Below, in pieces: positions 3,840 to 34,490 of a stretch of 38,015 nucleotides of DNA (positions within the stretch are counted from its first letter, which is position 1; each line of letters opens with the position of its first letter). The stretch covers positions 1-38,015 of the forward strand of contig JAGMCN010000034.1 in NCBI GenBank assembly GCA_023129235.1. Direction: 5' to 3'. The stretch is from Caldifarciminota bacterium. GTDB taxonomy: Bacteria > Hydrothermota > UBA3073 > JACQXS01. Position numbers and translations under genes: made by a program. The notes beneath the pieces are model-generated. The model was not told the origin of the DNA. It made no database searches and saw only the letters and a list, made by a program, of their open reading frames with translations.

Positions 3840-5615
3840 ATGGATTTTTGGGAAAGAATAAAGGAAAGAGTGCTTGTTGCTGATGGAGCAATGGGAACTC
3901 TTCTTTATGAGCGCGGAGTGCCAAAAGGTCATTGCTATGACGAGCTTAATCTGTCCAATCCAACACTCATTCAAGAAATACATAAAGCTTATCTTGATGC
4001 TGGTGCTGAGCTAATTGAAACTAATACCTTCGGGGCAAACGAGTATATTCTCTCAAAATACTATGACCTTGGTGAAAAAAGCAAAGAAATTAACTATAGA
4101 GGTGCGAAAATTGCAAGAGAAGTAGCGAGGGATAAATTTGTAGCTGGAACTGTAGGGCCGGTTACAAGACCACTTGAATCAAGAGAAAAGTTACAGTCAT
4201 CAGAAATAAAGGAGATTTTTACATCACAGATTCTTGCTCTTCTGGAAGGAGGAGTAGACCTCATTATCCTTGAGACTATGGCTTCTATTGATGAGCTTCT
4301 ATTGGGATTTCGGGCTGCAAGAGCAGTATGCGACCTACCTATAATATGCCAACTTTCATTTGCTGAAGATGGTCGCACAATTTTAGGTGTTGACCCTGTA
4401 GAGGCATCTATTAGACTTGACAAAGAAAAAGTCCAAATAATAGGTGCTAATTGCGGAATAGGACCCCAGAGCGTATATGAATCCATTCAGCGTATGGGGC
4501 ATATAACTCAGGCAACACTTTCAGCACAACCAAATGCAGGTAGAGCAAGTTGGACTGGAGAAAAGTTTGTGTATCCTGCTACACCAGAGTATTTTGCAGA
4601 CTACGCCAAACGTTATGTGAGTAGCGGAGTCTCGATAATAGGTGGTTGCTGTGGAACTACTCCTGCATACATATCTGCTATTAAAAACGCTGTTGAATCC
4701 TTAACTCCGAAGCCCAGAAAAATTGTGCAAATAAATGTAGGAGCAGGGTTGAAGCCCACTCCTACCGGTAGGGACGAGGTTACCTCGCCCCTACAACAAA
4801 TGCTTAAGGAGAAATTTGTTCTCAGTCTTGAACTTGAGCCACCAAAATCCACAAATGTTGAAAAAGAGTTACTCACAGCTGAAAGTTTTAAAAACTTAGG
4901 TGGGGATTGCGTTAATATATCAGATAATCCTATGGCGAGACTCCGGATGAGTCCTATTCCCCTTGCCCATATAATTCAGGATAAAGTGGATATTGAGGTA
5001 ATCCTACATTTTACCTGTAGAGACAGAAATCTCCTCGCAATTCAGTCTGACCTGATTGGAATGCATGCTCTGGGAATTCAGAACATACTTGCCCTAACAG
5101 GTGACCCACCATCAGTCGGGGATTATCCATTTGCAACAGCTGTTTTCGAAATTAACTCTGAAGGGCTTGTAGAAATCATAAACTCTCTTAACAATGGAAC
5201 AGACTGGCTCGGCAATCCAATTCCTAATCCAACTTCTTTTTTTGTGGGTGTTGCGAGTGGTTTAGACGGGCTATCCCGCACAAAGAAAAAAATAGCCAAA
5301 GGAGCAAGATTTATTCAAACTCAACCAATATTTGATATAGAGAATTTCCGAAAGTTTGTCTCGGAGTTCCCTGATATTCCTGTAATCGCAGGAATTCTTG
5401 TGCTTGGGAGCTTGCGACAGGCTGAGTTTATTCAAAATGAAGTCCCCGGAATTACTATCCCAGACCCAATAATGGAGAGAATGAAAAAAGGAGCTACTGA
5501 TGAGGGAGCAATTATTGCCAGAGAATTGCTTGGAGAGTTACGAAAGTTCTCCGATGGTGCGTGTATAATGATTCCAGGTGGAAAATATGAACTTATTAAG
5601 GATGTGCTAAAATGA
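3840..5615 (+). CDS. Bifunctional homocysteine S-methyltransferase / 5,10-methylenetetrahydrofolate reductase
   Basis: This is a fusion enzyme of the YitJ type. Residues about 1-290 are a zinc-dependent homocysteine methyltransferase barrel: DGAMGTLLYERG at the start, and the zinc ligands in GANCGIGP (about 204) and GGCCGTTP (about 267). Residues about 320-591 are a MetF-like flavin barrel: LELEPPKS, ALTGDPP, GVASGLDG and FIQTQPIFD. Together they would make 5-methyl-THF and transfer a methyl group to homocysteine, giving methionine. The length (591 aa) fits the family at about 610. The linker between the domains (about residues 300-319, GAGLKPTPTGRDEVTSP) is encoded by two tandem DNA hairpins, an inserted repeat. 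The metE gene at the window end belongs to the same pathway. No cobalamin-dependent MetH is visible. Confidence 0.93.
   Translation: MDFWERIKERVLVADGAMGTLLYERGVPKGHCYDELNLSNPTLIQEIHKAYLDAGAELIETNTFGANEYILSKYYDLGEKSKEINYRGAKIAREVARDKFVAGTVGPVTRPLESREKLQSSEIKEIFTSQILALLEGGVDLIILETMASIDELLLGFRAARAVCDLPIICQLSFAEDGRTILGVDPVEASIRLDKEKVQIIGANCGIGPQSVYESIQRMGHITQATLSAQPNAGRASWTGEKFVYPATPEYFADYAKRYVSSGVSIIGGCCGTTPAYISAIKNAVESLTPKPRKIVQINVGAGLKPTPTGRDEVTSPLQQMLKEKFVLSLELEPPKSTNVEKELLTAESFKNLGGDCVNISDNPMARLRMSPIPLAHIIQDKVDIEVILHFTCRDRNLLAIQSDLIGMHALGIQNILALTGDPPSVGDYPFATAVFEINSEGLVEIINSLNNGTDWLGNPIPNPTSFFVGVASGLDGLSRTKKKIAKGARFIQTQPIFDIENFRKFVSEFPDIPVIAGILVLGSLRQAEFIQNEVPGITIPDPIMERMKKGATDEGAIIARELLGELRKFSDGACIMIPGGKYELIKDVLK
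4737..4797 (+). repeat. Two tandem Family-2 hairpins inside the fusion gene linker
   Basis: The first hairpin (4737-4765) has arms GTAGGAG/CTCCTAC. The second (4768-4794) has arms GTAGGGACGAGG/CCTCGCCCCTAC with one mismatch around a TTA loop. The same GTAGGG...CCCTAC design occurs in intergenic copies at 34461-34490, and related hairpins lie at 10265-10293 and 14618-14673. Here the pair is read in frame, adds about 20 residues and contains no stop codon. Confidence 0.8.
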
Positions 5616-8100: not shown

Positions 8101-8158
8101 TAAGAGAGATACAGAGATTAGATATATAAATGTTTTCCTCTGTGCTCTCTGTGGTTAA
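8101..8158 (+). repeat. Imperfect palindrome of the CCACAGAG type upstream of a glycosyltransferase
   Basis: The spacer reads AGAGAGATACAGAG on the left and CTCTGTGCTCTCTGTGGTTA on the right, which are inverted and similar. A related, better preserved element lies at 34689-34751. The ORF track start at 8130 is inside this element, which argues for the downstream ATG at 8172 as the real start of the next gene. Confidence 0.6.
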
Positions 8159-8171
8159 AAAAGGAGATAAA

Positions 8172-9245
8172 ATGAAAATTGCTATGATGGGTGGTTGGAA
8201 CACAGACTCAGGTGCTTCGTTTCATGCCGAACTTGTTGGAAGAGCATGGATAGACCAGGGGCAGGGATTAAAAGTATTTACCTTTTACGACTATGCTTTT
8301 CACGGAACACAAATTACTGGCAAAGACGAGGATTATGTGGAAAGATGCTTTACAGTATCTTCATATACTCCTCCTAACCTTAATCCTGTTCCTTTTTTAG
8401 CTGAGGATTACGATATATTTGTTGTTCAGGACCTTGGGATGCTTCCAAAAGATTTGCTTGGCAAAATATTCCATCGCATAAAAAAGCGTGCTAAAGTAGT
8501 GAATGTAATTCACGACGGGAATCTATCGGAAGACCCTGCCTTTTATCAATTTGACTGGGATGCCATTGTGTGCTTTGATGAGAGATACCGAAAGTTTCTT
8601 ATCTCTGCGTATGACTCTGAGAAAGTTCGTATGATACCGTATCCCTGTCTCCCTTATGCTCCCGGGGACAAGAAAGCAAAAAGAGAGAAGTTAGGTCTCC
8701 CACAGGATAAGCATATTATCTTTAGCTTTGGACCGGCTTCAAACTCCACACTTGAAGTTATGCCAAGTATAGCGGAACTGGCTTCAAAATACCCGATATT
8801 AGTTTTAACGGTTACAAAGCACAAGGAAGCACTTGAAGGTTTTAAGTCAATTGTCAGTGGTCAGCAGTCAGGAGTCAGTATTGAGATAAGAGAAGAAGCA
8901 CCTCCTACAGATGAGCTATATGATTATCTACACGCTTCAGATGTGCTTGTTTTTAACAAAACATCTACTCCACAGGTAGTGGTTTCCTCAACTGCCTTCC
9001 AATGTCTTGGCTCAGGATGTCCAATTGTGGCAAAAGAGTCAAACTATGTGGAGTTTTTTGATAAAGAGGTGCTGAGGTATTCGGATGTGGACACTTTCAA
9101 ATCGCATCTCTCGGCAATTTTTGATAAAACGGAGGCATACGAAAGAACACTTGAATCTGCAAAAAAGTATGTGATAGAGAACTCGGCTCAAGAGATAGGC
9201 AAAAAGTATATAGAGCTATTTAAATCTTTAATTCAAAAATATTAG
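8172..9245 (+). CDS. Glycosyltransferase, GT4-like (group 1)
   Basis: This protein is about 357 aa from the ATG at 8172, which has AAGGAG six bases upstream. The ORF track start at 8130 lies in a repeat and is rejected. It has a GT-B architecture: an N-terminal domain beginning MKIAMMGGWN, a middle IIFSFGPASN segment, and a C-terminal donor-binding region with LGSGCPIVAKESNYVEFF resembling the family's E-x7-E region. The acceptor and sugar are unknown. It is followed by a GH130 enzyme, a pairing that suggests linked handling of a mannose-containing glycan. A repeat-derived insertion (SIVSGQQSGVSIE, about residues 226-238) interrupts the C-terminal domain. Confidence 0.75.
   Translation: MKIAMMGGWNTDSGASFHAELVGRAWIDQGQGLKVFTFYDYAFHGTQITGKDEDYVERCFTVSSYTPPNLNPVPFLAEDYDIFVVQDLGMLPKDLLGKIFHRIKKRAKVVNVIHDGNLSEDPAFYQFDWDAIVCFDERYRKFLISAYDSEKVRMIPYPCLPYAPGDKKAKREKLGLPQDKHIIFSFGPASNSTLEVMPSIAELASKYPILVLTVTKHKEALEGFKSIVSGQQSGVSIEIREEAPPTDELYDYLHASDVLVFNKTSTPQVVVSSTAFQCLGSGCPIVAKESNYVEFFDKEVLRYSDVDTFKSHLSAIFDKTEAYERTLESAKKYVIENSAQEIGKKYIELFKSLIQKY
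8846..8880 (+). repeat. GTCAGT-type short tandem repeat in the glycosyltransferase gene
   Basis: The stretch consists of near-repeats of GTCAGTGGTCAGCAGTCAGG. It is read in frame as SIVSGQQSGVS and has no stop. Its low complexity contrasts with the flanking coding sequence. Confidence 0.6.
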
Positions 9246-10264: not shown

Positions 10265-10293
10265 GTAAGGGCGGGTTTAAACCCCGCCCTTAC
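10265..10293. terminator. Hairpin between convergent genes
   Basis: GTAAGGGCGGG-TTTAAA-CCCCGCCCTTAC forms a stem of eleven or more pairs exactly between the GH130 stop and the end of the minus-strand gene. The position suits a bidirectional transcription stop, but no U-tract follows on either strand. It resembles the Family-2 hairpins, so it may simply be a repeat copy. Confidence 0.55.
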
Positions 10294-34460: not shown

Positions 34461-34490
34461 GGTAGGGACGTTCAATTGAACGCCCCTACC
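34461..34490. repeat. Near-perfect Family-2 palindrome after fcl
   Basis: GGTAGGGACGTTCAA-TTGAACGCCCCTACC is a 30-base palindrome with one mismatched pair. It may stop transcription from fcl, but lacks a U-tract. It shares GTAGGGACG and CGCCCCTAC with the second hairpin inside the methionine fusion gene. Confidence 0.8.

What the first reader, a model, noticed from the sequence alone, without database searches (positions are those of the whole stretch)
4737..4797. Two tandem palindromes form the interdomain linker of a methionine-synthesis fusion enzyme
The linker between the homocysteine methyltransferase and reductase domains is encoded by two back-to-back hairpins (GTAGGAG/CTCCTAC and GTAGGGACGAGG/CCTCGCCCCTAC) whose relatives are intergenic elsewhere in the window. 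A mobile-looking palindrome has been accepted at a place that tolerates sequence. It raises the question of whether such elements help build linkers.
Basis: partly seen in the sequence, partly recalled or inferred. Interest (0 to 1): 0.65.

Follow-up and report, generated by a model that had tools for sequence, protein, structure and literature searches.

The report
Mobile DNA palindromes inside enzyme linker
Two short hairpin-forming repeats of a mobile, REP-like family lie in frame in the stretch joining the two halves of a methionine-synthesis enzyme; such repeats inside genes were already known, but here the same family also sits inside the genes of the transposases that probably spread it.

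Summary
Two GTAG...CTAC palindromes (4737-4765, 4768-4794) encode residues 300-319 of a homocysteine S-methyltransferase/MTHFR fusion, between the two Pfam domains. They belong to a dispersed family: 17 GTAGGG...CCCTAC hits in the own genome against 0 for a reversed control. The best reading is GTAG-type REP elements in frame; intragenic GTAG REPs, including dimers, were described in 2013 (PMC3733652).

"Mobile palindrome in a tolerant place" holds. "Helps build linkers" does not: the linker region is 59-64 aa in 20 homologues with or without palindromes, and copies also sit inside catalytic domains, including both domains of this enzyme in a sister species.

Two less ordinary results: (1) at seven orthologous sites the palindrome stands in place of roughly 10-22 nt of coding DNA (net +6 to +18 nt), and some sites carry different palindromes in different species; (2) a clade of HUH Y1 transposases carries a palindrome inside its own reading frame just after the HUH motif (14 of 23 ORFs; 0 of 23 elsewhere in them; 1 of 25 other Y1 ORFs), usually with identical copies elsewhere in the same genome.

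The parts
3840..5615 (+). Fusion gene, 591 aa: homocysteine S-methyltransferase + methylenetetrahydrofolate reductase family
   Evidence: ORF; Pfam PF02574 E 2e-65, PF02219 E 7e-36
3873..4694 (+). S-methyl_trans domain, aa 12-285
4695..4802 (+). Interdomain linker, aa 286-321
   Evidence: Gap between the two Pfam domains; poorly conserved, length-conserved
4737..4765 (.). Palindrome 1, GTAGGAGCAGGGTTGAAGCCCACTCCTAC, read as VGAGLKPTPT; subfamily GTAGGGGCAGGTTTNAAACCTGCCCCTAC
   Evidence: subfamily relatives in G000:C244, G000:C222 and G002:C28
4768..4794 (.). Palindrome 2, GTAGGGACGAGGTTACCTCGCCCCTAC, read as (G)RDEVTSPL; subfamily GTAGGGGCGAGGTNACCTCGCCCCTAC
   Evidence: subfamily relatives in G000:C23, G002:C30, G003:C3/C87/C97, G006:C3/C8/C35
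4803..5507 (+). MTHFR domain, aa 322-556
10265..10293 (.). Intergenic family member GTAAGGGCGGGTTTAAACCCCGCCCTTAC; at the same site G002 has GTAGGGGCGAGTTTTAAACCCGCCCCTAC
34462..34489 (.). Intergenic family member GTAGGGACGTTCAATTGAACGCCCCTAC

Best explanation
The two hairpins are members of a GTAG-tagged REP-like family (small palindromes thought to be spread by HUH/Y1 'RAYT' transposases) that came to lie in frame in an already existing interdomain linker. Palindrome 2 was probably in place before families f1 and f4 of the order diverged, since its core GCGAGGTTACCTC survives, decayed, in G006. The palindrome-1 slot carries another subfamily in G006, the one that dominates that genome. The palindromes stand in place of old linker sequence, so linker length stayed about the same. 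They persist because a ten-residue stretch that is free of stops in two of three frames is tolerated in a connector; no function of the encoded peptide is needed. Shown: presence, family membership, reading frame, age relative to sister genomes, near-constant linker length, replacement-like net changes at comparable sites. Inferred: mobilisation by a Y1 transposase (none found in the 62%-complete own genome; present in most close relatives) and neutrality of the peptide.
For: 17 family hits against 0 reversed-control hits in the own genome; G001 34:1, G002 30:1, G003 26:0, G006 53:2. Exact copies at unrelated loci, e.g. 10 in G003 and 19 in the listed part of G006. GTAG end, 27-29 nt, no shared flanks. 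In-frame copies in many Pfam-supported genes. Linker series in sister genomes: intact, altered, decayed, other palindrome, none. Linker length 59-64 aa throughout. Sites with and without palindrome. Y1 transposases in relatives, with palindromes inside their own ORFs.
Against: No Y1 transposase was found in the own genome, though 38% of that genome is missing. No transposition was observed and no clean target duplication or exact junction was seen. Palindrome 1 is imperfect and not significant by itself. The G006 relic of palindrome 2 rests on a 13-nt core plus decayed arms.
Confidence: 0.85

Rival explanations
1. The palindromes arose in place by mutation or template-switch correction of imperfect inverted repeats, with no mobile element involved.
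For: Sister alleles change both arms together at one SelA site (GTAGGGGCACGATGCATCGTTCCTCTAC against GTAGGGGCACAATATATTATGCTCCTAC). At the TonB and MTHFR-domain sites the sequence without a palindrome shares short stretches with it. Template switching may well refresh existing palindromes.
Against: Identical 28-mers recur at many unrelated loci within a genome, and the subfamilies differ by genome; local correction cannot make dispersed identical copies.
Confidence: 0.08
2. The palindromes are kept for a function: an mRNA hairpin (e.g. translational pausing between domains), a DNA-binding site, or a useful linker peptide.
For: Palindrome 2 is retained in frame in G000 and G002 and the pair folds stably as RNA. 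Pausing between domains is a plausible general idea (own knowledge).
Against: Closely related homologues have eroded it (G001, G003) or lack it (G008) while keeping the enzyme. Encoded peptides differ freely among subfamilies and copies sit at unrelated positions in unrelated genes.
Confidence: 0.06
3. The elements build linkers: their insertion supplied or lengthened the connector and so helped the two domains to fuse.
For: The palindromes occupy 20 of about 36 linker residues.
Against: The same fusion, with the same linker length and no recognisable palindrome, exists across the phylum: 59-64 aa in 20 sequences.
Confidence: 0.02

Closest known systems
GTAG-tagged REPs with intragenic copies and dimers (Di Nocera et al. 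2013, PMC3733652)
   Same: 20-40 bp palindromes tagged GTAG, several families per genome, some in frame inside genes (DNA ligase, tRNA synthetases), as single units or dimers encoding 20-30 aa; the authors already suggest tolerance in linkers or loops; in one case (recB of two Xanthomonas species) different REPs at about the same site.
   Different: Here the palindromes are near-symmetric (GTAG at one end, CTAC at the other), about half of the copies examined in two genomes lie inside ORFs, and palindromes also lie inside transposase ORFs.
REPtrons / RAYT (TnpAREP) transposases (PMC2817692, PMC6006769, PMC8266576)
   Same: HUH Y1 transposase genes associated with GTAG palindromes that have further copies in the genome; the WQ...R spacing reported for GTAG recognition is present (inference).
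   Different: In the published descriptions read here the REPs flank the gene; in this clade a palindrome lies inside the ORF, just after the HUH motif.
Rickettsia palindromic elements (RPE; cited in PMC3733652)
   Same: Palindromes lying in frame in functional genes.
   Different: Other sequence families: RPE-1 is longer and the intragenic R. conorii repeats listed there are CGTC-tagged; no transposase association is given for CGTC repeats.
REP 'orthoswitch' (Nunvar et al. 2013, PMC3686654)
   Same: The palindrome class associated with an orthologous locus changes between related strains.
   Different: Described for REPs flanking RAYT genes; here different palindromes occupy orthologous sites inside ordinary genes and intergenic regions.

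Membership tests
GTAG REP elements | Short (20-40 bp) palindrome tagged GTAG at one end | tested here: met
   Both elements begin with GTAG and are 29 and 27 nt; the family is mostly 28 nt
GTAG REP elements | Dispersed, repeated in the genome above chance | tested here: met
   17 against 0 control in own genome; 26-53 against 0-2 in G001, G002, G003, G006
GTAG REP elements | Association with a RAYT/TnpAREP-type Y1 transposase | tested here: inconclusive
   No Y1_Tnp in the incomplete own genome; present in relatives, with palindromes inside their ORFs
GTAG REP elements | Predominantly extragenic | tested here: not met
   9/16, 6/31, 13/23 and 4/8 copies inside ORFs in G000, G001, G003, G002. 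'Extragenic' is part of the name but not a requirement in PMC3733652, which reports intragenic copies
GTAG REP elements | Mobilised by a cognate transposase | not testable with these tools
   Needs biochemistry or strain-level polymorphism; only copy-number association seen
REPtron (RAYT gene with flanking REPs) | REPs flank the transposase gene | tested here: inconclusive
   In the clade studied the palindrome is inside the ORF (14 of 23); two G043 genes have a second identical copy about 320 nt away; a Spirosoma relative has one directly after the stop codon. Flanks were not surveyed systematically
Rickettsia palindromic elements | Sequence membership in an RPE family | not tested
   No RPE sequences were compared
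S-methyl_trans/MTHFR fusion (YitJ-like) | Both domains in one ORF | tested here: met
   the same fusion in relatives. Enzyme activity not tested

The most novel reading that the evidence does not exclude
A transposase-palindrome arrangement in which the mobile palindrome lies inside the transposase's own reading frame (loop after the HUH motif), so that gene and cognate palindrome are copied as one unit; satellite palindromes then spread by replacing short stretches of target DNA and overwrite each other at fixed sites, many surviving in frame inside host proteins such as this linker.
Probability: 0.5. Interest if true: 0.72.

Novelty: new member of a known kind. Interest (0 to 1): 0.5.

Why it matters
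How REPs disseminate is described as poorly understood (PMC8266576). Here related genomes show loci with and without a palindrome inside genes, and each of several transposase genes carries its own candidate cognate palindrome, so specificity can be tested pair by pair. For protein evolution, it shows linkers and loops being rewritten by mobile DNA without change of length class, rather than being built by it.

Tried and rejected
The pattern GTAGGN{6,36}CCTAC is too loose (39 against 35 in the control). AlphaFold with three sequences gave a useless model (mean pLDDT 44.9), so linker flexibility is inferred from domain boundaries only and no fold search was run. The PDB search hits only the methyltransferase half. 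The genome-contig scan returned only the two sister MAGs, titled 'bacterium', so the phylum is not named. A clean 28-nt insertion with target duplication was looked for and not seen in close pairs; the nearest is the FGAM synthase gene, +27 nt against distant relatives. Flanks have no motif beyond a weak T before GTAG. 'Linker building' was considered and rejected on linker length.

Full report
Observation. Window 4737-4765 and 4768-4794 hold two GTAG...CTAC palindromes two bases apart. Both are in frame in the 591-aa ORF 3840-5615, between S-methyl_trans (aa 12-285) and MTHFR (aa 322-556). The second is beyond chance on its own. The first is unremarkable alone (score 5) and is credible as an element because it matches a dispersed subfamily.

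Family. GTAGGGN{4,30}CCCTAC gives 17 hits in the own genome (16 distinct sites, as two overlap) and none for the reversed control. Among relatives: G001 34:1, G002 30:1, G003 26:0, G006 53:2. Most distant genomes fall to control level, with scattered exceptions such as G047 79:8, G023 27:1 and G050 24:4. Most copies are 28 nt, perfect or nearly so, with subfamily-specific interiors and no common flanks. Exact copies recur at unrelated loci: 10 of GTAGGGACAGATTATAATCTGTCCCTAC in G003, 19 of GTAGGGGTTTGATTAATCAAACCCCTAC in the listed part of G006.

Inside genes. Of the copies examined, 9/16 (G000), 6/31 (G001), 13/23 (G003) and 4/8 (G002, partial) lie inside mechanically called ORFs, where 84-92% of the fetched sequence is ORF. 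They are therefore depleted in genes but far from excluded. Among 27 copies well inside ORFs of at least 150 aa the frames used are 19:8:0; the third frame would read the TAG of GTAG. Hosts with Pfam support include an asparagine synthase, an iron-containing alcohol dehydrogenase, an M50 protease, NAD-dependent DNA ligase (between HHH and BRCT domains), FGAM synthase, a methylguanine methyltransferase, SelA, glycosyltransferases, ArgS, a TonB receptor, a lipoyl synthase-like radical SAM protein, a UPF0004/radical SAM/TRAM protein, a glycerol-3-phosphate acyltransferase and a YjeF/Carb_kinase protein.

History of the linker. Twenty sequences with this protein (the window's own included) were found in 80 genomes. 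The span from GGCCG to the LExEPP motif is 59-64 aa in all of them. The sister G002 (92% identity) keeps palindrome 2 (GTAGGGACGAAGTTGCCTCGCCCCTAC) and has a palindrome 1 with a different left arm (GTAGGGACGAGTTTGAAGCCCACTCCTAC). G001 and G003 have linkers that align without large gaps and look eroded. G006, in another family of the order, has GTAGGGGTTTGATAAATCAAACCC followed by GCGAGGTTACCTCACCATTAC: a decayed palindrome 2 preceded by a different palindrome 1, of the type that dominates its own genome. G008 and the class-level outgroups show no palindrome. So the second slot is old, the first slot was refilled, and length hardly changed.

Arrival looks like replacement. Orthologous sites with and without a palindrome differ by: lipoyl synthase-like gene +6 nt, a G002 ORF (L192) +9, the MTHFR domain of the G001 fusion enzyme +9, TonB receptor +12, M50 protease +18, ArgS +18, and the methyltransferase domain of the G001 fusion enzyme +18. 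With 28-29 nt elements (24 nt, truncated, in the MTHFR case), roughly 10-22 nt of old sequence are gone. Clean insertion followed by compensating deletion is not excluded, because the pairs are related species and not near-identical strains. Elsewhere the same site holds different palindromes in different species: a glycosyltransferase (L114 v L212), an intergenic site (L119 v L197), SelA and DNA ligase (L116 v L213). A published parallel is recB of two Xanthomonas species (PMC3733652).

Transposases. No Y1_Tnp was found in the own genome; 46 of 80 genomes have one, including G001, G002, G003, G006 and G008. A search with the palindrome-bearing G003 ORF found a clade with the motif PNHxHG in 16 genomes. 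In 14 of 23 readable ORFs a palindrome with GTA(G/A) and (C/T)TAC ends lies within 50 codons after the HUH motif, against 0 of 23 before it and 0 of 23 further on. Among 25 other Y1 ORFs there is one case (L131), whose core GGGGCAATTGCCCC is that of the 20-nt palindromes repeated in the same genome. Exact copies, the embedded one included: G003 10; G001 4 and 3; G006 4; G013, G015 and G018 2 each; G043 2 and 2 (neighbouring); G059 and G011 only the embedded one. The spacing of the residues reported for GTAG recognition in E. coli TnpAREP (W94, Q95, R104; PMC6006769) is present in the clade's WQ...R motif (inference). Outside the phylum, a Spirosoma relative has a palindrome directly after its stop codon and a Leptolinea relative has none, so embedding is not universal.

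Literature. Intragenic GTAG REPs, including dimers and including DNA ligase and tRNA synthetases, and the argument that linkers or loops tolerate them, are published (PMC3733652). REPtrons are described there with flanking REPs, and class switching as 'orthoswitch' (PMC3686654). No description of palindromes inside the transposase ORF was found in the searchable library, which lacks most subscription papers.

Verdict. A real feature, correctly seen, of a known kind. The linker-building idea is not supported. The transposases with embedded palindromes and the replacement pattern are the parts worth following.

Noticed in passing
L237-L262 (e.g. L237 1561-1588, L256, L258): Y1 transposase ORFs of a PNHxHG clade carry a GTAG palindrome in frame just after the HUH motif; the interior differs between genomes and usually has further identical copies in the same genome.
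   Followed up: partly
L087 3001-4803 (G001 homologue of the window's enzyme): The same fusion enzyme in G001 has two other palindromes in frame, one in the methyltransferase domain (KEMCRGNSRTAPIFVAG against REVARDKFVAG) and a truncated one in the MTHFR domain (KFVGAVREPPNIP against KFVSEFPDIP).
   Followed up: yes
window 8844-8879 (gene 8130-9245): Where G002 has a GTAGAAGCGAGTCACCGACTCGCTCCTAC palindrome, the window has an unrelated AGTCAGTGGTCAGCAGTCAGGAGTCAGT repeat-like stretch of the same length; flanks 96-98% identical. A similar motif (TVNSQQSTVNS) precedes the palindrome in SelA and appears in lipoyl synthase.
   Followed up: partly
L120 2066-2093 and 2998-3025 (G000 SelA gene): SelA carries two in-frame palindromes; the first differs in sequence between G000 and G002 with changes in both arms, and the second is another subfamily in G001.
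   Followed up: partly
L143, L144, L156, L160, L163 (G001): A 19-20 nt subfamily GTAGGGGCAATTGCCCCTAC, intergenic, often inside a larger GGGTA...TACCC context; its core is embedded in the Y1 ORF of L131.
   Followed up: no
G043:C116:3296 and 3616; G043:C154:3786 and 4108: Two G043 transposase genes each have a second, identical palindrome about 320 nt from the embedded one.
   Followed up: no
G023 (same phylum): About 18 copies of a perfect palindrome GTAGGGAACAGGCATGCCTGTTCCCTAC in one genome with 14 Y1_Tnp matches.
   Followed up: no
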